NCBI GenBank assembly: GCA_008501785.1
Contig: QQUD01000699.1
Span: 1-11,312, forward strand
Length of the DNA stretch: 11,312 bases
From: Chloroflexota bacterium
Lineage (GTDB): Bacteria > Chloroflexota > Anaerolineae > Promineifilales > Promineifilaceae
Direction: 5' to 3'
Shown piece after piece: positions 1 through 11,312 of this stretch; within the stretch, counting starts at the first letter, position 1, and every line of letters begins with the position of its first letter. The position numbers and the translations under genes are program-made. A model generated the notes under the pieces. It searched no databases and had not been told where the DNA came from. It saw nothing but the letters and a program-made list of their open reading frames with translations.

Positions 1-896
1 TCCACAAAATGCGGACAGCGGGTATGGAACGTACATCCCGTGGGTAAACTTAACAAGCTCGGAATATCTGCGCTGCGAAGTTCAATCGCCTTTTTTGTAC
101 GGGCAATATTCGGGTCAGCTTCAGGAACGGCCGACAGCAGCGCCTGGGTATAAGGATGTCGCGGATTGCCAATTACCCGTTTGGTGGGGCCTTCCTCAAC
201 AATTCGGCCCAGATACATCACAACAATTCGGCCTTCATGCCACGAAAAATATTTAGCAAGCGCCAAATCGTGTGTAATAAACAAAAACGTGACTTCAAGC
301 TCCGCTTTCAGACGCGACAACATCGTTAAAATGCTGACTCGCAGGGAAACATCAACCATCGAAACCGCTTCATCTGCCACAATAAAGGACGGATTCATGG
401 TCAGTGCCCGTGCCACCGAGACGCGCTGACGCTGGCCGCCGCTCAACTGATGCGGGAATTTTGCCATCACTTCATCAGGGGGCGTCAACCCCACAATTTC
501 TAATAGCTCAATGCCGCGCTTGTAAGCCGCAGCCCTTGTTTTAGCAGCACCATGCCGCAGCAACGGCGTTGTCAACATCTGCTCAATGGGCTGGGTTGGG
601 TTCAACGAAGCATAAGGGTCTTGATGCACAATTTGCACCGCATGACGGTATTTTTTGTATTCACTTTTGTTCATCTTGGTGATGTTTTGGCCCATATAGG
701 AAACCTCGCCATCTGATGTTGCCAGCAAGCCAGCCGCCATGCTGCCGGTTGTGCTCTTGCCACAACCGCTTTCACCTACCAGACAAACGATTTCGCCGGG
801 TTCAATGGCGATGTCAACAGAGTCAACGGCCGTTATCTGATCCCGACCACCGCCAAACGTGCGCGTTACATTTTTGAGTTCAATTAATGGTGTCAC
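1..896 (-). CDS. ABC transporter ATP-binding protein, OppF/DppF type (3' end cut by window edge)
   Basis: ATPase subunit of an oligopeptide-family importer; with the D subunit it powers substrate uptake at the cytoplasmic face of the membrane. I translated 298 uninterrupted codons. Seen: Walker A GESGCGKS (residues 41-48), Q-loop Gln92, signature LSGGQ (151-155), Walker B FIVADE (171-176), H-loop His209, and the start of the C-terminal oligo_HPY segment with HPYT (247-250) and two cysteines (288, 294) of the usual cysteine cluster; the rest lies beyond position 1. The start is GTG at 894-896, overlapping the stop of the D subunit by GTGA, with AGGGG about 10 nt upstream. The stretch after Walker B reads VADEAVSMVDVSLR, where peptide-type OppF normally has DEP-SALDVS. 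Relatives with DE[PA]VSM-D-SLR are, as far as I know, mostly associated with cello-oligosaccharide or other sugar uptake, so the substrate is more likely a sugar oligomer. That assignment is an inference. Confidence 0.93.
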   Translation of the reverse strand, partial: MTPLIELKNVTRTFGGGRDQITAVDSVDIAIEPGEIVCLVGESGCGKSTTGSMAAGLLATSDGEVSYMGQNITKMNKSEYKKYRHAVQIVHQDPYASLNPTQPIEQMLTTPLLRHGAAKTRAAAYKRGIELLEIVGLTPPDEVMAKFPHQLSGGQRQRVSVARALTMNPSFIVADEAVSMVDVSLRVSILTMLSRLKAELEVTFLFITHDLALAKYFSWHEGRIVVMYLGRIVEEGPTKRVIGNPRHPYTQALLSAVPEADPNIARTKKAIELRSADIPSLLSLPTGCTFHTRCPHFV

Positions 897-1984
897 TTTA
901 TCAATTCCCCTGTGCCTGAGCTTACCGCAGCAGCGCGTTCTCGATTCCACGCATCCACTGCCACCTTCACTTCCCGCCAATGCCAACAAGCCGCATAATG
1001 TGCATCGCCAACCCGTTCCAAATCCGGCTCTTCATGTTTACACTTATCCGTCGCAAACGAACAGCGCGGATGGAACTTACACCCTGTCGGCATATTGATG
1101 AAGTCTGGCGGTGAACCAGGAATAGAGAACAGCTCTTCAAAAGCACCAGTTACGGTAGGCACCGCCCGAATCAACCCCAATGTGTAAGGATGTCTCGGGG
1201 TGTAAAACAGATCATCCGTTGGACCCGTTTCCACAACCCGACCGGCATACATCGTCGCAATGCGATCTGCCAATTCAGCCGCAATCGCTAAATCATGCGA
1301 GATGAAAACCATCGTAAAATTCTTTTCTTCTTTCAGCCGCCGCAGCAGCGTGATAATGGTCCGCTGCGTCAAAATATCCAAAGCCGTTGTCGGTTCATCC
1401 AAAATCAAAATTTGCGGATTCAACAGCAGCGACATGGCAATCAAAACACGCTGCCGCATCCCACCACTCAGCTCATGTGGATACGCATTGATCACACGAT
1501 CCGCATCGAGCTGCACGAAATCAAGCAAATCAAGTGCCTGCTGGCGCACCGCTTTTTTATCTTTCCAACCATGTGCCTTGGCCGTATCCCAAATCTGTTC
1601 CCAAACGCGTAACACCGGGTTAAATGCATTTAGTGCCGATTGGAAAACCATCGCACATTCTTGCCAGCGGAATTGGCGTAAGGCTTCCGGGTCCAAATCA
1701 AGTACATCCACTTCATTCTGTCCGCGACGATACACGATGTTGCCTTGGTGAATTTCGGCCGTTTTCACCAACAGTCGCACAATCCCCAGACCCAACGTTG
1801 TCTTACCCGAGCCGCTTTCACCAATCAGCGCCAGACTCTCACCCGAATTTAAAACCATATCAACGCCGCGAATCGCCTGCACAAGCCCCTTGCCTGTTTT
1901 GTAATGAATATGCACATCCTCCAACCGGAGAGGTGCTTCGCGATTTGCCGCAATCATTTTTTTGTAGGTAGACTGTGTTGTCAT
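893..1984 (-). CDS. ABC transporter ATP-binding protein, OppD/DppD type
   Basis: Second ATPase of the same importer, 363 residues, full length for the family. Seen: Walker A GESGSGKT (55-62), Q-loop Gln115, signature LSGGM (172-176), Walker B ILILDE (192-197), D-loop ALD, H-loop His230, then the C-terminal oligo_HPY region with RHPYT (264-268) and cysteines 302, 308, 315 and 333. In this family such a four-cysteine set is associated with an iron-sulfur cluster. LSGGM instead of LSGGQ is a common OppD variant. The ATG at 1982-1984 is preceded by GGAGG (1994-1998), which lies inside the end of the upstream permease gene; the intergenic gap is only 4 nt. The stop TGA (893-895) overlaps the GTG of the F subunit, so the two ATPases are probably translationally coupled. 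Confidence 0.95.
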   Translation of the reverse strand: MTTQSTYKKMIAANREAPLRLEDVHIHYKTGKGLVQAIRGVDMVLNSGESLALIGESGSGKTTLGLGIVRLLVKTAEIHQGNIVYRRGQNEVDVLDLDPEALRQFRWQECAMVFQSALNAFNPVLRVWEQIWDTAKAHGWKDKKAVRQQALDLLDFVQLDADRVINAYPHELSGGMRQRVLIAMSLLLNPQILILDEPTTALDILTQRTIITLLRRLKEEKNFTMVFISHDLAIAAELADRIATMYAGRVVETGPTDDLFYTPRHPYTLGLIRAVPTVTGAFEELFSIPGSPPDFINMPTGCKFHPRCSFATDKCKHEEPDLERVGDAHYAACWHWREVKVAVDAWNRERAAAVSSGTGELIK

Positions 1985-1988
1985 TTGC

Positions 1989-2906
1989 CTATGCCTCCGT
2001 GCGCAACCGTGGGTTAAAAATCAGCTCCAACGAACGGTTCATGGTAATGAGCGAAAATTGGAGCAAAGCAATGGCAACCACAGGACTCATGATGTACCAA
2101 ATACTGTCCTTATAAAAAATAGCGCCGCGTGTCCAGGCCAGACTGAGCATAATGCCCCAGTTCGTACCTGCAAATGGGGCTAACCCTAACAAAACCAGCC
2201 CAACCAGTGCATAAATTGCGCCCGTCATGGCCAGCGTAAAGCTGATAATGATGTAAGACATCATATTGGGAACAATCTCGCGGAAAATAATATGCGCTGT
2301 TCCCAAATCCAATGCGCGCGCTGCTTCGATAAAATCGCGCTCTTTTAGCGACAACGCCTGCGAACGCACAGCCCGCAGCAGCGCGGGCCAGTTTAGCAAC
2401 CCCAAAATCACGCCCAGGAAAAGATTGTTGTTAAAGGTTAATATGGCTGCCAGCACCACCAGCAGCGGAAACCTGGGTATCGTTAACACAAAGTCTGTAA
2501 TAGCCACAATCAGGCTGTCTACCCAGCCACCGGCAAAACCGGCCAGCGTGCCAAAGGTGACACCAATGGCTGTTGAAATGATGCCTGCAGCCAAACCAAC
2601 TAAAAGCACATCCTTACCACCATGAATAATCTGCGAAAAAATGTCGCGTCCCTGATGGTCGGTTCCCAACCAAAATTCGCTGGTTGGCGTGCTATAAATC
2701 TGGTCAACTTTGGTGTCTGTATCCAGCTCAACAAAATACGGCCCGACAAAGGAAATGAGAATAATCGAGACAATGGCTAAAAATCCAATATAGCCAACTG
2801 TGTTGAAGCGCATAATGCGCAAGGTTGTCCGTGTCGAATGAAAGAATCGCTTCACGCGTACCCAAATCGGGTTAGGTGTTAATTCTGTATTGGTATTTGT
2901 ACTCAT
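1989..2906 (-). CDS. ABC transporter permease, OppC/DppC type
   Basis: Inner-membrane permease of the importer, 305 residues. It has a cytoplasmic N-terminus, a first membrane segment at about 36-55 (OppC_N-type region), a periplasmic loop containing the family hallmark WLGTDHQGRDIFSQIIHG (79-96), then the BPD_transp_1 core with membrane helices at about 100-124, 132-156, 160-176, 216-242 and 272-290. The EAA coupling loop that docks on the ATPases is EAARALDLGTAHIIFREIVP (194-213). The ATG start (2904-2906) has AGAGG 7 nt upstream. It follows the B permease by 11 nt and precedes the D ATPase by 4 nt, so it is co-transcribed. Confidence 0.95.
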   Translation of the reverse strand: MSTNTNTELTPNPIWVRVKRFFHSTRTTLRIMRFNTVGYIGFLAIVSIILISFVGPYFVELDTDTKVDQIYSTPTSEFWLGTDHQGRDIFSQIIHGGKDVLLVGLAAGIISTAIGVTFGTLAGFAGGWVDSLIVAITDFVLTIPRFPLLVVLAAILTFNNNLFLGVILGLLNWPALLRAVRSQALSLKERDFIEAARALDLGTAHIIFREIVPNMMSYIIISFTLAMTGAIYALVGLVLLGLAPFAGTNWGIMLSLAWTRGAIFYKDSIWYIMSPVVAIALLQFSLITMNRSLELIFNPRLRTEA

Positions 2907-2917
2907 ATTTGCGCCTC

Positions 2918-4003
2918 TTAACCTTGGTCTTCCAGCCGAATTCGTGGATCGATCCAGCTATACAAAATGTCAGCCAGCAAATTGGCTAAGATGACAGAAA
3001 ATGTCAGAATCAAAAATACGCCTTGCATCAGCGTGTAGTCTCGACGCTGCACACTTTGGAGCAATGTAAATCCAATGCCACGATATTGGAACAAGGTTTC
3101 GATAATGACCGACCCACCCACAATAAAGCCGATGGCAATTGCTAACTGTGTAAAAATAGGCAAAGATGCATTTCGACCGACATATGCTGTTAAAATGCGG
3201 CTGTCTTTTAGCCCTTTTGCGCGGGATACGGTGACGTAATCTTCTTCTAAAATACCGATGGTGCTGCTCTTCATGGTCAACATCCAGCCGCCAACACCGG
3301 TAATCACATACACAAAAATGGGAATTGAGGCATGGAACCAGGCATCTTTGATAAATGCCCACGATAGTTCTGGTTGAACCCCTGGTGACAAGACACCACG
3401 CATTTCAGAAATGGAAAAAAGTTCCATACGGACCCCAAAAAATACAATAATAATGATGGCAATCAGATAGTTTGGCACAGAGGTCATAATCGAAGCATAA
3501 AACGTCAAAACATGGTCAAAAATTGAATCACGCCTGTACGCCATGAGCAGACCTAAAACAACCCCAATCAAAAAACTTAGGATAAGCCCCGTGCCCACAC
3601 TGAAAATTGTCCAGGGCAACCATTCCAAAATAATGGATGATACGGAAGTCCCTGGCGACAAAATCGACGTGCCTAAATCGCCCTTAAGCAAATTCCCCAC
3701 ATAATCGAAATATTGGAGAATAACGGAACGCTCAAAATCAATGGCAAAAAGGGCTGAAGCCTGATCACGTGCTTCGTGAATGGGTATGCCGTATTGAAGC
3801 ACAAGTTGATTGACATACTGTTCAATTGGATTGCCCGGTAATAGACGAATCAGGAAAAAAGTAAATGTAGAAACAGCCCAGGCTGTTACCATTGCTTTCA
3901 AAATCTTGCGAACAATATAGTTTGAAGTTATCGCACGTATTCGCTGACCAACGGACGGTTGGTCCGTGTCGGTCGTGGGTTGAGATATAGCGGGTGCGGT
4001 CAA
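2918..4003 (-). CDS. ABC transporter permease, OppB/DppB type (TTG start)
   Basis: First gene of the transporter operon, 361 residues. It pairs with the C permease to form the membrane channel. After a polar N-terminal extension of about 30 residues, the first membrane helix is at about 34-54, followed by the family motif FFLIRLLPGNPIEQYV (49-64). BPD_transp_1 helices lie at about 132-156, 166-190, 224-243, 283-302 and 326-347. The EAA-like loop starts EEDYVTVSRAKGLKDSRIL (253-271), and the C-terminus has the typical DPRIRL (352-357). The start codon is TTG at 4001-4003. I accept it because AGGAGG sits 4 nt upstream and no ATG precedes the first helix in a suitable place. Upstream are two groups of short repeats and then the ROK regulator, so the operon may be expressed from this gap or by readthrough from the regulator. 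Confidence 0.94.
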   Translation of the reverse strand: MTAPAISQPTTDTDQPSVGQRIRAITSNYIVRKILKAMVTAWAVSTFTFFLIRLLPGNPIEQYVNQLVLQYGIPIHEARDQASALFAIDFERSVILQYFDYVGNLLKGDLGTSILSPGTSVSSIILEWLPWTIFSVGTGLILSFLIGVVLGLLMAYRRDSIFDHVLTFYASIMTSVPNYLIAIIIIVFFGVRMELFSISEMRGVLSPGVQPELSWAFIKDAWFHASIPIFVYVITGVGGWMLTMKSSTIGILEEDYVTVSRAKGLKDSRILTAYVGRNASLPIFTQLAIAIGFIVGGSVIIETLFQYRGIGFTLLQSVQRRDYTLMQGVFLILTFSVILANLLADILYSWIDPRIRLEDQG

Positions 4004-4014
4004 AATTCCTCCTG
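4002..4014 (-). promoter_or_regulatory. Ribosome binding site deciding the TTG start of the OppB-type permease
   Basis: On the minus strand AGGAGG is followed by AATT and then TTG. The perfect Shine-Dalgarno core four bases before TTG is the reason for choosing this non-ATG start. The spacing is slightly short. Confidence 0.7.
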
Positions 4015-4025
4015 TGAAATTAGCT

Positions 4026-4052
4026 GTCAGCTATCAGCCGTCAGCTATCAGC
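4026..4052. repeat. 13-bp direct repeat in the leader of the transporter operon
   Basis: GTCAGCTATCAGC occurs at 4026-4038 and again at 4040-4052, separated by one base. The preceding bases TAGCT (4021-4025) belong to the same theme. It lies just upstream of the TTG start of the first permease. Short GCTGATAGCTGAC-like strings are, to my knowledge, seen dispersed in intergenic DNA of some bacteria; function unknown. Confidence 0.75.
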
Positions 4053-4059
4053 TTTTCAT

Positions 4060-4098
4060 ACGTGGTGATATGCCACGTTCGTGATAATATGCCACGTT
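4060..4098. promoter_or_regulatory. Tandem 19-bp palindromic repeats, candidate operator for the ROK regulator
   Basis: CGTGGTGATATGCCACGTT (4061-4079) is followed without a gap by CGTGATAATATGCCACGTT (4080-4098); 17 of 19 bases agree. The first copy contains a 6-bp inverted repeat, ACGTGG (4060-4065) with CCACGT (4073-4078), around a 7-nt centre. The second keeps CGTG...CACG. They lie between the ROK regulator gene and the transporter operon, where a repressor of the operon would bind. The operator role is inferred from position and symmetry. No clear -35/-10 pair could be picked out here. Confidence 0.5.
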
Positions 4099-4141
4099 TA
4101 TGAACTTTCCTCTTCAATGGCTCCCCAGCCAATAGTGCTAA

Positions 4142-5329
4142 TTAAACAACGCCAAGTACGTTTGACAGAATTAGGGCGGCGGCTCCTTTGATGACGATGT
4201 CGGAGCCTAAGCTTGTCAATGTGATACTGGACTTTTCGACAAATTTTTGCAATGCATGTTGGTTGACTATTTCTCGCAGGGGCAGCAGCAGGTCTTCGCC
4301 AAAGCGGGCTAAACGTCCACAAATCACAATCTGGTGAATATTGAGGATGCCTACCAGGTAGGCTATTGCCATGCCAATATGCTTGCTGGCCTCAATGATG
4401 AGTTGTGTAATCATTTCATCTCCGGCTTGGAAAGCCTGGAGGATGATGTCGGTATCAATTTCATCTGCATGTTGCACAAAGTCGTGCAGCAATGAATCTG
4501 AATTCGTGTTGAATATAGTACGGGAACGTTCGATGAGGCCGCGACTACCGGCAATGGTTTCTAAACAGCCGTAGTTGCCACAGGCGCACTGTTCTCCGTG
4601 TTCAGCAACTTTGATGTGACCAATTTCGCCGTGGCCGGGGCTGTCGCCGGCGTATAAACGGCCGTTTACCACAATCCCCGCGCTAATCCCCTGGCCAGCC
4701 TTCACCACAATAAAGTTTTTCCGATTGCGTTCAAGACCAAAGTTAAACTCACCGAGCGCTGCCAGTTGGCTGTCATTGGCAATGTGAACAGGCACGTCAT
4801 ACCGATTTTGCAGCATCTCTGCCAAAGGCATGTTTTTCCAGCCGATGTTAACTGCTTCATCTACAATGCCCATCTGTGCATCGGTGATACCAGGCGTCCC
4901 CACGCCAATTCCCAAAAGCGGTCCGGATTTGCATGCAAGCAAATCGTCAATCAACTGACAAACGCCATCAAACGCTTTTTCTCCCCGGAGTCCTTCTACA
5001 GAAAGCTGCGTGGAATGGCAGATATTGCCTTTCAAATCCATGAGCGCACCACGAAACCGACTGTTGCTTAAGTCTAAACTGATGATTTCATGGGAATCGT
5101 TGAGGAAACTGAGGAGTGTCGGAGGTTTCCCCCCTTGTGATGGACCTTGACCCGTTTCAGCAACCAAACCATCGTCGATTAGCTCTGCGACAATACTAGA
5201 AACGGTGGTTCTAGTTAAATGTGTGCGACGGGCAATATCGGCGCGACTAATGGCATCATCATCAAAAATGGTTTTAAGAATGAGACGCTTGTTGTGATCC
5301 TTCGTTTGCTGCTGGGTTGCTTTACGCAT
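4142..5329 (-). CDS. ROK-family transcriptional regulator (NagC/XylR/Mlc-like), probable sugar-responsive repressor
   Basis: A winged helix-turn-helix fused to a ROK sugar-binding domain, 395 residues from the start chosen here. HTH: about 26-57 (ISRADIARRTHLTRTTVSS). ROK domain: GIGVGTPG (140-147), IANDSQLAALGEF (183-195), and the ROK signature GHGEIGHIKV (232-241) plus C-x-C-GNYGCLET (248-258). His238, Cys248, Cys250 and Cys255 match the spacing of the structural zinc site of Mlc. An in-frame ATG nine codons further upstream (5354-5356) would give 404 residues. I prefer the ATG at 5327-5329 because AAAGGTG lies about 6 nt before it and because a strong promoter with an expected transcription start near 5365 leaves no room for a ribosome site before the upstream ATG. 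Its gene precedes the transporter operon on the same strand, so it probably controls sugar uptake; the inducer is unknown. Confidence 0.93.
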   Translation of the reverse strand: MRKATQQQTKDHNKRLILKTIFDDDAISRADIARRTHLTRTTVSSIVAELIDDGLVAETGQGPSQGGKPPTLLSFLNDSHEIISLDLSNSRFRGALMDLKGNICHSTQLSVEGLRGEKAFDGVCQLIDDLLACKSGPLLGIGVGTPGITDAQMGIVDEAVNIGWKNMPLAEMLQNRYDVPVHIANDSQLAALGEFNFGLERNRKNFIVVKAGQGISAGIVVNGRLYAGDSPGHGEIGHIKVAEHGEQCACGNYGCLETIAGSRGLIERSRTIFNTNSDSLLHDFVQHADEIDTDIILQAFQAGDEMITQLIIEASKHIGMAIAYLVGILNIHQIVICGRLARFGEDLLLPLREIVNQHALQKFVEKSSITLTSLGSDIVIKGAAALILSNVLGVV

Positions 5330-5371
5330 GAATCGCACCTTTCTTTGTAAATCCATCGGACTAACAAAGAA

Positions 5372-5400
5372 AGTGTATCGTCATACGTACCTGTTGTCAA
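5372..5400 (-). promoter_or_regulatory. Sigma-70-type promoter for the ROK regulator
   Basis: On the minus strand a perfect TTGACA (5395-5400) is followed by a 17-nt spacer and TACACT (5372-5377). The predicted transcript starts near 5365 and gives a leader of about 36 nt to the ATG at 5329. The spacer contains TCATACGT (5381-5388), which also occurs at the edge of the repeats upstream of the permease operon (4057-4064). Confidence 0.7.
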
Positions 5401-5430
5401 GGCATTATTCTTGATACCAATGTAAGCTGG

Positions 5431-5459
5431 TTGACATTACCCCTTTTGTTGTCTAGACT
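5431..5459 (+). promoter_or_regulatory. Sigma-70-type promoter for the FGE-like gene
   Basis: TTGACA (5431-5436), a 17-nt spacer, then TAGACT (5454-5459). The predicted start near 5466 gives a ~50-nt leader containing two direct copies of TTGTCA (5471-5476 and 5480-5485). It is divergent from the ROK promoter 30 bp away. Confidence 0.7.
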
Positions 5460-5515
5460 AATTTGCGACCTTGTCAATATTGTCACAGTTGGTTTTGTTT
5501 TAGGAGGAGGTAAGA

Positions 5516-6424
5516 GTGAAACGTGCTACCATTGTTCGATCTTTTCTGTTTGCATCTTTGATAACAATCATCCTGTTTGTCGTGGAGTATAGCCCGATGC
5601 GAGGCGACGAGACTATGCCCAATGCACCGACCCAGACGACAGATGTTCCCGACGTATTTTTGCCAGTGGTACTGAAAGCGCTGAACCCAGTGGTTATGGT
5701 TGTGCCCGCCGGGGAATTCCAAATGGGCTGTGACCCGGCGCACACTGGCGGTTATTCATGCCTTCCAGATGAATTGCCATTACATGCTGTGTACCTGGAT
5801 GCTTACAACATTGATAAATACGAAACGACGAACAACCAGTATGCAGCATTCCTCAATGGACGGAACAGTAATGATTGCGGTGGTCATGAATGTATAGACT
5901 TGGGTGACCCGCGTACGCATATCACCTACCAAGGCAATCAATATTTAGCAGAAAGCGGTTATGGCGACCATCCGGTAATTGAGGTAAGTTGGTATGGAGC
6001 AAATAGTTATTGCACAGAGAATGGCGGCCGGCTGCCCACCGAAGCGGAGTGGGAAATAGCGGCAAGAGGGACAACGATACGCGCTTACCCATGGGGCGAC
6101 CAAGACCCGGATTGTACCTTGGCTAATTTTTCAGGATGCCTAAATGATACCAGCCAGGTAGGCGCCTATCCGGCCGGAGCTAGCCCGTATGGCGCGATGG
6201 ATATGGCAGGCAATGTTTGGGAATGGGTGAATGATTGGTATGATGCCAACTATTACATCAGTTCACCTTATAGTAATCCACAGGGACCCGCTAGTGGTAC
6301 ATTTAAAGTGCTGCGGGGCGGCGGTTGGAGCCCCAGTTGGTCCCCCCTCCGCGTCGCCTACCGAAACCCCTACCGCCCACAGGACCCGCTCTCCTTTGCG
6401 GGGTTCCGGTGCGCGTCCTCCTAA
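5516..6424 (+). CDS. Secreted FGE/SUMF1-fold protein (PF03781-like), probable DGR variable (target) protein
   Basis: A 302-residue protein with a GTG start and a strong AGGAGGAGGT ribosome site just upstream. The N-terminus (KR, then hydrophobic 9-24) is a signal peptide or signal anchor. A linker carries FLPVVLK (48-54), and the FGE-sulfatase fold follows: PAGEFQMG (64-71), YETTNNQYAAFLNG (102-115), HPVIEVSWYGANSYC (152-166), GRLPTEAEWEIAARG (171-185), PWGD (192-195), GAMDMAGNVWEWVNDWY (226-242), LRGGGW (266-271), AGFRCA (295-300). True formylglycine-generating enzymes have two active-site cysteines between the GG-[SW] turn and RVAAR; here that stretch (WSPSWSPLRVAYR) has none, so sulfatase activation is unlikely. 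This fold is also the C-type-lectin scaffold used by DGR target proteins such as Treponema TvpA, and the C-terminal 30 codons look like a variable region. A likely role is surface ligand binding by a diversified domain. Confidence 0.88.
   Translation: MKRATIVRSFLFASLITIILFVVEYSPMRGDETMPNAPTQTTDVPDVFLPVVLKALNPVVMVVPAGEFQMGCDPAHTGGYSCLPDELPLHAVYLDAYNIDKYETTNNQYAAFLNGRNSNDCGGHECIDLGDPRTHITYQGNQYLAESGYGDHPVIEVSWYGANSYCTENGGRLPTEAEWEIAARGTTIRAYPWGDQDPDCTLANFSGCLNDTSQVGAYPAGASPYGAMDMAGNVWEWVNDWYDANYYISSPYSNPQGPASGTFKVLRGGGWSPSWSPLRVAYRNPYRPQDPLSFAGFRCASS
6320..6412 (+). other. Candidate DGR variable region (VR) at the 3' end of the FGE-like gene
   Basis: Codons 270-299 encode W, SPS, W, SP, LRVAYR, NPYR, PQDP, LSF, AGFRC. 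DGR variable regions on this fold typically have template-encoded N-runs at exactly these places: W-NNN-x-NN, then L/x-R-x-A-x-R-NNNN-P-D-N-R-NNN-x-GFR. The number of residues between each fixed position agrees. At the putative variable positions the codons are AGC, CCC, AGT, TCC, CCC, AAC, CCC, TAC, CGC, CTC, TCC, mostly NNC, as expected when adenines of AAC codons are replaced. The stretch is visibly more C-rich and A-poor than the rest of the gene. The end (TTTGCGGGGTTCCGG and following) would correspond to the GC-rich IMH side. No template repeat was found in the window, so the assignment rests on protein layout and codon pattern. Confidence 0.65.
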
Positions 6425-6440
6425 GAAGGGTGAATTACTG

Positions 6441-6518
6441 ATGAAAACGTACAAGAATCTCTAACCGCAAATACACACTTTTGCTAACTTGTGTTCCATT
6501 GCTTATTTTAAGAGATAA
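6441..6518 (+). pseudogene. Remnant of a DGR reverse transcriptase N-terminus
   Basis: An ATG at 6441, with GGTGA 7 nt upstream, opens a frame reading MKTYKNL, then TAA (6462-6464), then PQIHTFANLCSIAYFKR up to a second TAA (6516-6518). DGR-type reverse transcriptases characteristically begin MK-x-Y-x-NLYPQIY-x-FENL-x-x-AY-x-KAR. If the first TAA replaced a tyrosine codon (TAT or TAC), the match would run over about 22 codons. Beyond that the frame has more stops and shows no RT catalytic motif (YxDD or similar) before the terminator at 6575, so the body of the enzyme is gone. The start lies 17 nt after the stop of a protein with a DGR-like variable region. The identification is from remembered family sequence, not from a search. 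Confidence 0.65.
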
Positions 6519-6574
6519 ATCGCCAAACACTGAAAGAGACACTTTGTACTAAATGACGAGATTTGCAGCTCTGT

Positions 6575-6605
6575 AAAACCGAGTTTCTGGCAGAAACTCG
6601 GTTTT
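6575..6605. terminator. Bidirectional hairpin terminator between convergent genes
   Basis: AAAACCGAGTTTCT (6575-6588) and AGAAACTCGGTTTT (6592-6605) form a perfect 14-bp stem around the loop GGC. Because the arms are bordered by A4 and T4, it can act as a rho-independent terminator on either strand: for the FGE-like/RT-remnant transcript on plus and for the large secreted protein on minus. Confidence 0.85.
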
Positions 6606-6662
6606 GATTTGCCACCATTTGGGAACACGATTTGTGTTAGTTAGGCTTATGCATCATATTTA

Positions 6663-9600
6663 TTATTGAGGGGTGCCAATTTTTATGTGTGAGATGTTGT
6701 TATAGTCGCCTTTGGTCAATTCGTGGCTTTCTAGCACACCGCCATGCGCTGTTTCTGTATTGGATGAATCGACTTGTGCATACACCACCGTGCCTGCGGT
6801 GAGTGGCCATGTCACATTGCTAATGCTGGCATCGTAGTAGGCATCGTTAATTGTCAATGTAAGCCGTTCGCCCGGTTGCAGCGGCAAGGCAGCAGCGGGA
6901 ATGCCCCATACTAAACCTTGTTTACCGACGATGGGCCAGGTATGGTTAACGGCCGTTGGCACCGTAACCGGGTCAATATAAACATCCACCCAAAACTCGT
7001 TAACCACCATGCCCTCTCCAATATTGGCAATCACAATTTGTAGATTGTCACCCGCTTCGTTTACCAAAATCTCTTCAACAATCAAGTCTGGGGCGTTTAC
7101 CACTTGATTCATTATCGTTGGCATATACACCTTACCAACTTTGAAGAAACGATAAATACCTGCATGATTAACAGCAATCTGCAAACGATTGTTAACTGTG
7201 TCTCTCGCCAGCATTTGAATCCCATCTTGGGACCATTCTGACCCATTCCAGTAATAAAGCGCGAGACTGTCTTCGCCTGGCCCCGCTGCTGCAACGGTAA
7301 GGTTGTTGTCGTACGCTAAGGTGAGAGTTAACGGCCGTTTCCACACCTCCACATCATCCAGCAAGCGCCCATCATCAAATGCCGCCAGTGAAAACCCCTG
7401 GCCGACGGGATCATACCCTGGCAAGGCACGTTGCGTCGGATCGACTTGATCGTACACAAGCGCAAATTGTGTATCGGTCGTGACACTTTGCGGAATTTGA
7501 ATCGTGATACTCAAATCGTCACTTGTGCTGATATTTTGCACGGAGATCGTGCTGCCGTTGATGCCCCCGTCAATGCCGTCGACAACGGTCATTTTTATTT
7601 CTGAGGTGCTTGAGAGGAAACCATCGCTCACCGTGTAGGCACAAATTTCCACGCCTGTGTGTGTGCTGTCCGGCATGTAATCTTGTAAATTTCCATTGGC
7701 ATCAATGTTGATTGTGCCACCTCGATTCGGTGTGCCCACATGGCTAACGGTTAATAAATCGTCTTCAACGTCTTCATCATTCTCAAGAACGTTGAGGGTG
7801 TCGATGGGCGGTGCGGCCAATATCTCAATTTGCCCATTGTCACGATCACGTAAGGCAACGGCCGTATCAAGCACCCCTTCAGGCGCATCATTCACTGAAT
7901 CAATCGTCACGTTCACTTGAATCGTATCCGTCAACCAGCCATCAAACACCTGCACGATAAACGTGTCAGAGCCATTGTAGTGGGCAGCGGGTGTGTAGCC
8001 AATGACGCTGCTGGTAGCTGGACCAGAAACGGCCGTTGCTACCCCATTCCCAGCTTGCGATTGCATAGCCCAGGTTAACGTGTTGTTTTCGGCATCAGTG
8101 GCGTTCAGCGTGAGCGCAAAGGGTGTCGGGTTGCTATCCTCGCTCATGGTGACGGTAACGGCCGTTCCCTCCACAATCATCGGTGCATCATTGGTCGCAT
8201 TAATCGTGATTGTGATATTGCCCGTATCGTTGAACTCGCCATCGGTGACAGTATAGGTGAGCGTGTCCATCCCCGTGAAGTTCAAGGTGGGCGTGTACAC
8301 CAAAGTTTGGCTGCCACTGTAAACGGCCGTTCCATTTGCCGGTACGCCAAATGATTGAATCGTGGTCGGATCGCCCTCAATATCATTCAACAATGGGGTG
8401 AGGACAATAGAGAAATCTTCGGTGGTGGTAAACACGTCATCCACTGCAATTGGCGCGAAGTTGGGAATGTTTATGCTAGCATTGGCCGTATTGTTGCTCA
8501 GCACGACTTCCGTAGCAAGAGAATCAATGGTCACGGTGTTGGTAAATAAACCCTTCGCCAGTGCATCGGCCAATACGGCGCTCACGGTAATCATTTCGCT
8601 GGCACCGGGTAACAGTTGATGCAGCTGCCACACATAGGGCGAGTCGCCACTAACATCTGTGATAGTCGCACTGCTCGAAATAGTGGGTTGTGTGATTTCA
8701 GGTGGCAAAGTGTCGGTGATCGTTAGACGCGGCAAAACGGCCGTTCCCATATTGGTAAACACAAGCGTGTACGTAATCGGCTGACCCGGTGCGGGTGTCG
8801 TCTCTATTCCTTTGGAAATGGCAATATCGGATGTGTACGTGGTCTCATCAAAACCAATATCTACACCTGTACCGCCAGGACGTGCATCTCCATCTGCATC
8901 TGTGGCAACGCCCGCGTTTGTACCTGTGTTGACCGCTTCACTAGCTGTTGTCAGATGATAATTATCTAGATTGGCATCAACAAACGCAGGATCACCTGTA
9001 AAGCTGTGCGCTCCGCTTGTGATGGTGCCGCTGATTGCGGTTGCTTGATGATATAAGTTGAAATCTTCGTAAACTGTGCCCGCCAATCGGTTGAGAGCAA
9101 CCGTGTAGCCGGAGAAAATGTTGTTAACGGCCGTTATCCCACTCGTCGCATCAATGTGCAAAGCCGTCGTGTCCGGGCTTGCTGCGCCAACAATAGTGTT
9201 ATGCAGCACGGTCATCTCGCCGCTGTGCAATGCGGCCATCATGCTGCCCCCATCCCCGGCTTCGTTCCGCACAAACAGCCCGTTTACAATCTGTCCATCG
9301 CTCCCTGAATGCACAATAGCACCACCAGTGCCAGAGGCCTGGTTTGCAATAAATTGCGTCTGACTGATCCACAAGTCGCCCTTCACTTCAACAGCACCGG
9401 CGTGGCCATTATTGGCTGCATTTGCCGTGAACGCACCACTCGTCAGCCACAGATTCCCATTAACGGACAGCGCACCGCTCTTTTTCGCGGCCGTATTGCT
9501 GATAAAGTTGCTGTTTGTGAGGGTTAAATCATTCTCCACATACATCCCACCCACGTCAAAAATGTTGACGGTGTTTTGCTGAAAACGGCCGTTTTCCACC

Positions 9601-10532
9601 ACAGCCGAATCCCCAGCCCACACGGCCCCTGCAAACAAGTATGCTGTATTGCTAATAAATTCAGTGCCGCTGATCGAAATATAATTGTCCGCAAAAATGC
9701 CACCACCAATGCTACCTGACAGATTATTGATAAACTGTCCATTCGTGAGCACTGTCGTTGCGCCTAAAACCATGATGCCCCCACCCTCTCCGGCGGCGGT
9801 GTTGCTGAGAATATCACTGTTGGTCATGGTCAGATTACCGGCAACTTGCATTGCGCCACTGTCATCGCTGGCTTGATTGTGAGTGAAACGGCCGTTTGTC
9901 ACCACCACATCATCCAATGCATAAACGCCCCCCCCATCTCTTGTGGCTGTGTTGCTCAAAACATCGCTATTGGTAATCGTTAACAGACCCTCCACCTGCA
10001 TTGCGCCACCGTGTTGGTCGCTGTGATTACCAACAAACGCCACATCTGTCAGTGTGACATCGCCACCGCTGTCCAGCCCGCCACCGCTGGTTGCAGAATC
10101 GCCGTCTAAAATTGTCAAGTTGCTCATCGTTATCGGCACGTTCGCCGCCACATCAAAGATACGATTGGCATGATTACCGCTAATGTTTAACAACGTTTTG
10201 CCAGGACCATCAATAATCAGACCATCCACAAGCACGGCGATTTGCCCCAGGCTAAGGGTGATAGTTGCTGGCGTGGAAAGTGCAAAATCCAATGAATCGA
10301 CACCACTGCCAGCCACACAGGCGTCAACAGCCGTATCCCCATTCGCCGCCGCAATCGCTTCCCGTAAGGAACAATCCCCATCTGTATTCAATTCATCGTC
10401 TGTCGTAGTGACAGTAATAGTTGCTGCATAAGCCACGGGTGTGTACCCAATGCCCCAAAGCAGCGCCAGGGTCAGCCCCGCACCGATACATAATGCCAGA
10501 AGTATGCCCAAAACGCCTGTTACTCGCGTCAT
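6663..10532 (-). CDS. Large secreted multidomain protein: CSLREA / beta-helix / DUF11 / cadherin-like / CARDB-like
   Basis: 1289 residues with an ATG start (10530-10532) and AGGAAG 6 nt upstream. Signal peptide about 1-36 (hydrophobic 7-27, cleavage near AYA). CSLREA motif in TTTDDELNTDGDCSLREAIA (42-61). Right-handed beta-helix about 85-530, built from ~25-residue turns of the type LTMTNSDILSNTA-GGGI. It ends in the block running from GDPAFVD (513-519) to GVDIGFDE (556-563), as in choice-of-anchor proteins. DUF11 (567-690) contains ITDTLPPEI. Three cadherin/Ig-like domains follow at about 693-778, 783-878 and 880-985, with TLTYTVTDGEF, DTFIVQVFDGW and EICAYTVSDGF. A module at about 993-1130 is shared with the neighbouring gene. 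Then VYMPTIM (1135-1141) and a CARDB-like domain (1147-1285) starting APDLIVEEI. Probably an extracellular adhesin or surface/matrix protein; substrate unknown. No sortase or PEP-CTERM anchor is seen at the C-terminus. Confidence 0.92.
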   Translation of the reverse strand: MTRVTGVLGILLALCIGAGLTLALLWGIGYTPVAYAATITVTTTDDELNTDGDCSLREAIAAANGDTAVDACVAGSGVDSLDFALSTPATITLSLGQIAVLVDGLIIDGPGKTLLNISGNHANRIFDVAANVPITMSNLTILDGDSATSGGGLDSGGDVTLTDVAFVGNHSDQHGGAMQVEGLLTITNSDVLSNTATRDGGGVYALDDVVVTNGRFTHNQASDDSGAMQVAGNLTMTNSDILSNTAAGEGGGIMVLGATTVLTNGQFINNLSGSIGGGIFADNYISISGTEFISNTAYLFAGAVWAGDSAVVENGRFQQNTVNIFDVGGMYVENDLTLTNSNFISNTAAKKSGALSVNGNLWLTSGAFTANAANNGHAGAVEVKGDLWISQTQFIANQASGTGGAIVHSGSDGQIVNGLFVRNEAGDGGSMMAALHSGEMTVLHNTIVGAASPDTTALHIDATSGITAVNNIFSGYTVALNRLAGTVYEDFNLYHQATAISGTITSGAHSFTGDPAFVDANLDNYHLTTASEAVNTGTNAGVATDADGDARPGGTGVDIGFDETTYTSDIAISKGIETTPAPGQPITYTLVFTNMGTAVLPRLTITDTLPPEITQPTISSSATITDVSGDSPYVWQLHQLLPGASEMITVSAVLADALAKGLFTNTVTIDSLATEVVLSNNTANASINIPNFAPIAVDDVFTTTEDFSIVLTPLLNDIEGDPTTIQSFGVPANGTAVYSGSQTLVYTPTLNFTGMDTLTYTVTDGEFNDTGNITITINATNDAPMIVEGTAVTVTMSEDSNPTPFALTLNATDAENNTLTWAMQSQAGNGVATAVSGPATSSVIGYTPAAHYNGSDTFIVQVFDGWLTDTIQVNVTIDSVNDAPEGVLDTAVALRDRDNGQIEILAAPPIDTLNVLENDEDVEDDLLTVSHVGTPNRGGTINIDANGNLQDYMPDSTHTGVEICAYTVSDGFLSSTSEIKMTVVDGIDGGINGSTISVQNISTSDDLSITIQIPQSVTTDTQFALVYDQVDPTQRALPGYDPVGQGFSLAAFDDGRLLDDVEVWKRPLTLTLAYDNNLTVAAAGPGEDSLALYYWNGSEWSQDGIQMLARDTVNNRLQIAVNHAGIYRFFKVGKVYMPTIMNQVVNAPDLIVEEILVNEAGDNLQIVIANIGEGMVVNEFWVDVYIDPVTVPTAVNHTWPIVGKQGLVWGIPAAALPLQPGERLTLTINDAYYDASISNVTWPLTAGTVVYAQVDSSNTETAHGGVLESHELTKGDYNNISHIKIGTPQ
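9708..10007 (-). repeat. Two consecutive 150-bp (50-residue) beta-helix repeat units
   Basis: Residues 176-225 and 226-275 of the large secreted protein align without gaps at their start: GAMQVEGLLTITNSDVLSNT against GAMQVAGNLTMTNSDILSNT. Each unit has two helical turns, the second ending TNGRFTHN or TNGQFINN. Later units (from about 328) follow the same pattern more loosely. This shows growth of the beta-helix by duplication of two-turn units. Confidence 0.7.
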
Positions 10533-10566
10533 AATTCACTTCCTAATTCGGTGTTTAACAGATTAC

Positions 10567-10621
10567 GCAGATTTCGCAGATTTTCACTTTATTGCTCAAT
10601 AGATCAATCTGTGAAATCTGC
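10567..10621. repeat. Imperfect inverted repeat between the two secreted-protein genes
   Basis: GCAGATTTCGCAGATT (10567-10582) and AATCTGTGAAATCTGC (10606-10621) are inverted copies with 15 of 16 positions complementary, separated by 23 nt. Each arm is itself a short direct repeat of CAGATT. It fills most of the 120-bp gap between the end of the upstream gene and the start of the large gene, so it may end the upstream transcript, though it lacks a T-tract typical of a rho-independent terminator. It may instead be a copy of a dispersed intergenic repeat. Confidence 0.65.
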
Positions 10622-10652
10622 AAAATCTTCGATAAATTTCTTGTAAAAACCC

Positions 10653-11312
10653 TTAAGGTTTAACCACCATAGGTAAATAGACGGTGAAACCATCCGTGCC
10701 AAAGAGCGCAAACTCGGTCAGATGGTTGATTTCCACAACCAATCGATTGTTGTCAAGGTCGCGCTCAACAATCGTGATGCCATCTGTTTGCCACGAAGCG
10801 CCATCCCAATAATGCAGTTCAAGACCTGCTTCACCATCGCGAACCGCTTCAAGGTCGGCATCATCGTAAACGAGGGTAAGCGTCAATGGTTTGTCCAGCG
10901 CATAGGGTGACGGCATCGGTGTGCCATCTTCATACGGAGTCAACGTGAACACAACACCTGCAAACGCGAACCCTTGTGGTGCATTAGCTGTCAGCGCTGC
11001 TTCATCGAATACCATGCTAAATTGTTCTGTCCCGGCAATGACATCTGCCGGAATTTGGATGCTCACGTCCGTTGCACTGCTGCTGCCGATGTTGGATAGG
11101 CTCATCGTTTCGCCTGCGCTGGCTGCCTTATCACCAGCGACCATCTTGATGTGGACAACGGCCGTTTCCGCCAACTGCCCATCAGAAACCGTATAGGTAA
11201 ACGTCTCCGTGTCGCCAACATCTAGAATTGGCGTGAAGGCAACCTGATTGCTGTTGGCATAAGCAGTGCTGGCAACAGAGGGATCGCCGACAGCGGTCAA
11301 ATTCATCGAGTC
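10653..11312 (-). CDS. Secreted surface protein, C-terminal part (5' end beyond window)
   Basis: The frame is open to the right edge (…DSMNLTAVGD), so the Met at 11304-11306 is internal, not a start. The visible 219 codons begin inside a cadherin/Ig-like domain (ETFTYTVSDGQLAETAVV), followed by a ~150-residue module with DVSIQIPADVI, KPLTLTLVYDDADL, LELHYWDGASWQTDGI and DNNRLVVEINHLTEFALFG, and end with VYLPMVVKP just before the stop. The same module is found at residues 993-1130 of the downstream 1289-residue protein (SITIQIPQSV, RPLTLTLAYDNNL, LALYYWNGSEWSQDGI), so the two are paralogues in tandem. The VYLPMVVKP tail resembles the short C-terminal motif common in exported Chloroflexota proteins. 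Function unknown; surface or extracellular role inferred. Confidence 0.88.
   Translation of the reverse strand, partial: DSMNLTAVGDPSVASTAYANSNQVAFTPILDVGDTETFTYTVSDGQLAETAVVHIKMVAGDKAASAGETMSLSNIGSSSATDVSIQIPADVIAGTEQFSMVFDEAALTANAPQGFAFAGVVFTLTPYEDGTPMPSPYALDKPLTLTLVYDDADLEAVRDGEAGLELHYWDGASWQTDGITIVERDLDNNRLVVEINHLTEFALFGTDGFTVYLPMVVKP

What the first reader, a model, noticed from the sequence alone, without database searches (positions are those of the whole stretch)
6441..6518. Stump of a DGR reverse transcriptase directly behind the target gene
MKTYKNL-stop-PQI-x-x-F-x-NL-x-x-x-AY-x-K is a clear echo of the conserved start of DGR reverse transcriptases, in the right place and on the right strand, with a ribosome site. 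An in-frame TAA falls where a tyrosine codon is expected, a second stop follows 18 codons later, and everything downstream of about 26 codons is missing. It was too short and broken to be called as a gene.
Basis: partly seen in the sequence, partly recalled or inferred. Interest (0 to 1): 0.8.

Follow-up and report, generated by a model that had tools for sequence, protein, structure and literature searches.

The report
Relic of a lost gene-diversifying machine
Behind an intact lectin-like gene lies a 17-codon leftover of the enzyme that once scrambled that gene's end; related bacteria carry similar leftovers, so this looks like a fossil of a known diversification system rather than a new machine.

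Summary
Codons 1-17 (6441-6491) match the start of DGR reverse transcriptases (RT): 18-19 bits, best of 300 shuffled windows 3.8. The tail read as 'AY-x-K' adds 1-2 bits and lies in a short sequence also found outside RT genes.

The gene upstream (5516-6424) is an FGE/C-type-lectin protein with a variable-region-like end. The closest relative found (L002, a Chloroflexi MAG) keeps target, RT, Avd and template; its 15 template/variable differences all lie at template adenines. The window shows no remainder of RT, Avd or template.

It is not a one-off: I collected 41 N-terminal RT fragments, 32 with an FGE-type C-terminal match upstream (not a random sample). At two loci an intact homologue from another genome shows the RT-Avd-template block missing in between. 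Others are internal RT deletions or an insertion-split gene.

Loss of DGR machinery with retained targets is published, so this is a new member of a known kind. A function of the stump found no support. The window's own genome is not held.

The parts
5516..6424 (+). Intact target gene, 302 aa, FGE-sulfatase / C-type-lectin type, hydrophobic N-terminus (by eye)
   Evidence: PF03781 E 1.8e-53; PDB relative 2y3c, Treponema denticola variable protein 1, E 3.7e-15
6305..6421 (+). Variable-region-like 3' end of the target (RGGGWSPSWSPLRVAYRNPYRPQDPLSFAGFRCASS)
   Evidence: Against the template repeat of L002: 18 of 25 template-A positions differ and 17 of 92 others; GGGTTCCGGTGCGCGTCC near the 3' end is identical
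6425..6440 (.). 16-nt gap between target stop and stump; from the target's GFRC-type motif to the RT start it is 40 nt here against 167-211 nt in four intact loci, so the usual spacer is missing
   Evidence: intact L002 199, L129 167, L131 175, L134 211
6441..6491 (+). RT N-terminal stump, about 17 codons, in-frame stop at 6462-6464
6492..6531 (+). Short sequence also found outside RT genes; it gives the stump its misleading RT-like tail
6575..6605 (.). Perfect palindrome with 15-nt arms, terminator-like, dispersed in related genomes
   Evidence: 31 of 31 bases at two places in G026 and near-matches in other genomes

Best explanation
The window holds a dead diversity-generating retroelement (DGR) locus. 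An ancestor had the order target gene (variable region) - RT - Avd - template repeat, as in the closest relative L002. RT, Avd and template were then lost, most likely by deletion in place; the target stayed intact and with it the first 17 RT codons, which now run into a short dispersed sequence and carry a stop. The spacer before the stump is gone too. Shown: RT identity of the stump, DGR-type target, absence of the rest from the window, the same arrangement elsewhere, and absence of the block between matching flanks at two loci in other genomes. Inferred: that loss in place also happened here, and that the target is now frozen.
For: Profile score against shuffles and DNA match to RT starts. 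L002: RT (PF00078, PHROG 1423, PDB 8ub7 E 4.9e-52), Avd (PF22296, PHROG 'Avd protein of DGR') and template, with 15 of 15 VR/TR substitutions at template A. 41 N-terminal RT fragments collected; 32 have an FGE-type C-terminal match within 800 nt upstream on the same strand, one of these being the template of L002. G007 L121 against G003 L135: 94.4% over 3.3 kb ending at RT codon 44, then 98.0% over 1.3 kb from behind the template; the 1.76 kb between is replaced by 155 nt in G007. G044 L122 against G020 L131: same pattern at 72-73%. Avd is found in L135 and L131, not in L121 or L122. L125, L126, L152: RT start joined to RT C-terminus.
Against: The stump is short and decayed, and the full-length RT profile does not see it. 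The window's genome is not held, so RT, Avd or template could exist elsewhere. No orthologous intact locus at the same genomic site was found, so loss in place is by analogy. The adenine pattern uses the template of a relative whose target gene is 71% identical in DNA, so it shows the type of region, not recent activity.
Confidence: 0.8

Rival explanations
1. Copied target: the target gene was duplicated together with the start of the neighbouring RT, so a whole DGR never stood at this site. (The odds given here overlap with those of the best explanation and do not sum to one.)
For: L002 has two extra RT starts downstream of its template, with 300 nt before them repeated at 94%. G044 has two similar target ends on one contig, 90% over 230 nt.
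Against: Two loci with an intact homologous counterpart fit loss in place on both flanks. The window holds no second copy of the target end.
Confidence: 0.14
2. Living remote target: the gene is still diversified in trans by an RT and template elsewhere, the stump being a bystander.
For: Trans diversification of targets whose own RT is lost is reported for Thiohalocapsa (PMC10907252, sections 7 and 8 read).
Against: 17 stump loci in 14 genomes were compared with the RT loci that I fetched from the same genomes; none matched a template of a separate DGR locus at all non-A sites. The one such match on another contig (G008) turned out to be one RT gene split by an insertion element. Templates that I did not fetch were not tested, and the window itself cannot be tested.
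Confidence: 0.15
3. Retained functional stump: the first RT codons serve as part of the target's 3' element, an RNA element or a short peptide.
For: 33 of 38 stumps have no in-frame stop inside the matching part; 30 of 41 end within the first 60 RT codons (not a random sample).
Against: No extra synonymous conservation in RT codons 2-55 against 56-345 among 21 full-length RTs (+0.047 against +0.046; divergence limits power). The window's stump carries a stop at codon 8, L120 six stops. Stumps may simply be young, and a bias towards the N-terminus follows from selection on the target next to it.
Confidence: 0.05
4. Chance resemblance.
For: Only about 17 matched residues, and the RT-like tail behind them did turn out to be coincidence.
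Against: Shuffles; DNA-level match from the first base of the ATG; expected place and strand.
Confidence: 0.01

Closest known systems
Truncated DGR RTs in the DiGReF survey (PMC3521204, passages seen)
   Same: RT genes broken by transposon insertion, nonsense or frameshift mutation in DGR loci
   Different: There the broken RTs were still listed as RT entries; here about 17 codons remain and no template is seen in the window
Treponema denticola isolates with target genes but no RT or TR (PMC4891356, passages seen)
   Same: Target retained, machinery lost; some described as remnants of core DGR components
   Different: The passages seen mention no RT stump; other phylum
Thiohalocapsa PB-PSB1 DGR loci (PMC10907252, sections 7 and 8 read)
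   Same: RT replaced by MITE-like palindromic arrays at some loci
   Different: Some of those targets are diversified in trans; no such evidence here
Cyanobacterial dispersed variable proteins (PMC7517822, passages seen)
   Same: Remnant TR/VR homology without RT; [quoted passage not shown]
   Different: Their example (all3226) has no proximal RT gene or pseudogene, whereas here the RT start remains

Membership tests
DGR-type reverse transcriptase (N-terminus) | Conserved start of the MKTYKNLYPQI..F.NL type | tested here: met
   18-19 bits against at most 3.8 in 300 shuffles; N-termini of relatives
DGR-type reverse transcriptase (working enzyme) | Full RT domain of about 340 aa with the YxDD and SQ motifs (motif names from recall and a passage of PMC3521204) | tested here: not met
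   No further RT match in the window; other RT pieces score E 0.085 or worse
Complete DGR locus | Template repeat near-identical to the VR except at adenines | tested here: not met
   No second copy of 6301-6424 in the window; the rest of the genome is not testable
Complete DGR locus | Avd accessory protein (where present) | tested here: not met
   No tblastn match in the window better than E 0.15 with Avd of L002, L152, L193 and L001
DGR variable protein | FGE / C-type-lectin fold with C-terminal variable region | tested here: met
   PF03781, T. denticola variable protein 1 2y3c; C-termini differ strongly among relatives
DGR variable protein | Adenine-specific substitution relative to its own template | tested here: inconclusive
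   Only a relative's template was available: 18 of 25 A sites and 17 of 92 others differ
DGR target site | Hairpin/cruciform close behind the VR (PMC3240598, passages seen) | tested here: inconclusive
   The palindrome at 6575-6605 lies 150 nt behind the target gene's end and behind the stump; in BPP-1 the spacer is 4 bp

The most novel reading that the evidence does not exclude
Bacteria of this class repeatedly switch a DGR off by deleting RT, Avd and template while keeping the diversified target: hypermutation is used for a time and a successful variant is then frozen, the RT stump marking the event. Stumps would then be a usable signature for retired DGR targets that RT-based surveys miss.
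Probability: 0.3. Interest if true: 0.6.

Novelty: new member of a known kind. Interest (0 to 1): 0.36.

Why it matters
One fossil alone is ordinary. Taken with the others it suggests that loss of the diversifier while the diversified protein is kept is frequent in one group of bacteria, and that short RT starts behind lectin-like genes can be used to find such retired targets, which surveys that need an RT beside the target cannot see. It makes 'are DGRs switched off after a good variant is found?' testable by comparing selection on targets with and without machinery.

Tried and rejected
The RT-like tail lies in a sequence found at non-RT places; an extra codon that I had first put down to decay is part of that junction. 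Functional RNA or DNA element in the RT start: no excess of synonymous conservation. Trans diversification: G008 first looked decisive (15 of 36 A sites differ from a template on another contig, 0 of 85 others), but the two contig ends carry the two ends of an insertion element with an 8-bp duplication (read by eye; IS256-like from recall), so it is one split RT gene and was withdrawn. L151 shows the same pattern with a template in its own locus (21 of 30 A, 0 of 97 others), but a 2-base run of N lies 281 nt after the stump start, so an assembly gap cannot be excluded. An opposite-strand match in L145 (4 of 11 A, 1 of 34 others) was not followed. The first form of that script returned nothing, probably because of unsupported aligner settings. 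Hairpins behind stumps: stem score of 10 or more in 12 of 38 against 18 of 304 control windows; the controls include coding DNA, so a terminator explains this as well. Phages and plasmids: no match with the stump peptide; with 6425-6620 none in plasmids and two weak matches (E 0.2) in Fusobacterium phages, both in the tail part. NCBIfam and PHROGs do not see the stump. RNA families and tRNAs: none in the window. ROK protein as a marker: best 55% in G017, so no held genome of that order is close.

Bias to tell: the 41 fragments are those in loci that I fetched. I chose candidates by eye, mostly by short open frames; the lists were cut off by the tool. Five of the 41 end within 200 nt of a contig end (L118, L124, L140, L156, second stump of L002), and L124 is the split gene. 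The window's row in that list was entered by hand with an end at codon 26, now 17; the counts do not change. Domain-wise, in 56 genomes fragments of the N-terminus exceed those of the C-terminus only slightly (see full report).

Full report
OBSERVATION. The window is bacterial: frames of ABC-transporter ATPase and permease type on the left (named from recall of their motifs, one running off the window's start), a ROK regulator, the FGE-type target 5516-6424, the stump, then on the other strand a 1289-aa protein with Ig/cadherin-like and DUF11 domains. The stump scores 18-19 bits against RT N-terminal profiles; 300 shuffles of the window reach at most 3.8. Its DNA aligns from base 1 of the ATG with the starts of intact RT genes, 82% over 51 nt at best. 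The RT part ends at about 6491: residues 18-25 add 1-2 bits, and the DNA 6492-6529 matches a non-RT place in G019 at 87% over 38 nt, with shorter matches in G018 and G355. A 22-base pattern from it occurs at three places in 56 genomes, its reversed control at none. So the stump has 17 codons, not 26.

WHAT THE RELATIVES SHOW. A viral-contig scan with a degenerate RT start returned one locus, L001, with RT, Avd (PF22296) and a lectin-type target. Its RT brought in 120 listed relatives, many with a start of the MKTYxNLYPQIYDFxNL type. The target gene matched 491 places in public genomes, of which the best 80 were kept. The closest, L002 (Chloroflexi bacterium Dive96_bin10.74, 68% protein identity), has target, intact RT, Avd and template repeat. 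All 15 template-to-variable substitutions fall on the 28 template adenines of 123 bases. Against the same template the window's variable region differs at 18 of 25 adenine sites and 17 of 92 others. Of the 81 loci then held plus the window, 7 loci gave an RT match at E 1e-8 or better; most target relatives thus showed no such RT in the DNA fetched.

NOT A ONE-OFF. In the 56 genomes of the order of L002 a 46-residue N-terminal profile found 52 places, 13 of them without the following RT segment. Of the 13, two are joined to an RT C-terminus (G005:C226, G043:C104), one is the insertion-split gene (G008) and one lies 125 nt from a contig end (G042). Of the other nine, G004:C46 also keeps some C-terminal codons and one fragment of G001 ends 199 nt from a contig end. 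A C-terminal profile found 45 places, 9 without the middle segment: the same two joined ones, two at contig starts and five others. So it is nine against five, a slight excess that proves nothing alone. From order and class searches I collected 41 N-terminal fragments, the window included; 32 have an FGE-type C-terminal match within 800 nt upstream on the same strand (one of them the template of L002), and 30 end within the first 60 codons. The sample is not random.

HOW STUMPS ARISE. (a) Loss in place: G007 matches the intact DGR locus of G003 at 94.4% over 3.3 kb up to RT codon 44 and at 98.0% over 1.3 kb from behind the template; the 1.76 kb between is replaced by 155 nt. G044 against G020 gives the same picture at 72-73%. 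Avd is present in the intact partners and absent from both stump loci. (b) Internal RT deletions: L125, L126 and L152 join the RT start to its C-terminus. L152 lies in a 4.67-Mb contig whose genome gave no full RT (one weak match each); it still has Avd and a template from which its variable region differs at 23 of 33 adenines and 0 of 90 other aligned sites, with one 6-nt gap. Its RT loss looks recent. L146 appears to run from RT codon 47 into the template's 3' end (4 of 8 A, 0 of 30 others differ). (c) Insertion: G008. (d) Duplication: L002 carries two extra RT starts behind its template. Some stumps end at or near strong palindromes (L123, L139, L154). The one behind the L139 stump closely resembles 6575-6605 of the window, which is dispersed in related genomes.

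READING OF THE WINDOW. The simplest account is (a): the target was kept, everything behind the first RT codons was lost, and dispersed short sequences now follow. A function of the stump itself is not supported: RT codons 2-55 show no more synonymous conservation than the rest, and the window's copy has a stop. That 33 of 38 stumps lack in-frame stops points the other way; it may only mean that they are young.

KNOWN AND NEW. Broken RTs, targets without RT, and RTs replaced by palindromic arrays are in print (PMC3521204 passages; PMC4891356 passages; PMC7517822 passages; PMC10907252 sections 7-8). Four searches of the paper library (listings seen) and term look-ups in seven papers showed me no description of recurrent RT N-terminal stumps in Chloroflexota. 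Most subscription journals are not held, so this is weak evidence of novelty. I file the finding as a new member of a known kind, with a broader pattern worth a proper census. Odds are as first written; interest was lowered slightly because the stump proved shorter.

Noticed in passing
window, 13 places from 826 to 11158: The palindrome ACGGCCGT occurs 13 times (AACGGCCGTT 12 times) while no other 8-base palindrome occurs more than twice; looks like a genome-wide repeated motif, often inside coding sequence.
   Followed up: partly
window 6492-6531: Short sequence (TTATTTTAAGAGA.AAA.CGCCAAACACT type) shared with G018, G019 and G355 outside RT genes; nature unknown.
   Followed up: partly
window 6575-6605: Perfect palindrome with copies in a number of related genomes, similar to one behind the stump of L139.
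   Followed up: partly
L152 1556-2350: Locus in a 4.67-Mb contig with target, Avd and template present but the RT internally deleted; the variable region matches the template at all 90 aligned non-adenine sites. A DGR caught just after losing its enzyme, or an assembly error.
   Followed up: partly
L124 and L193 (G008 contigs C43 and C84): RT gene split by an insertion element with an 8-bp target duplication.
   Followed up: yes
L002 8498-10395: Template tail, hairpin and RT start repeated behind a complete DGR; would fit unequal exchange between variable and template repeat.
   Followed up: partly
window 6663-10532 and 10653-11306: Large convergent protein with cadherin/Ig-like and DUF11 domains and an adjacent open frame with a similar-looking C-terminus (by eye).
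   Followed up: no
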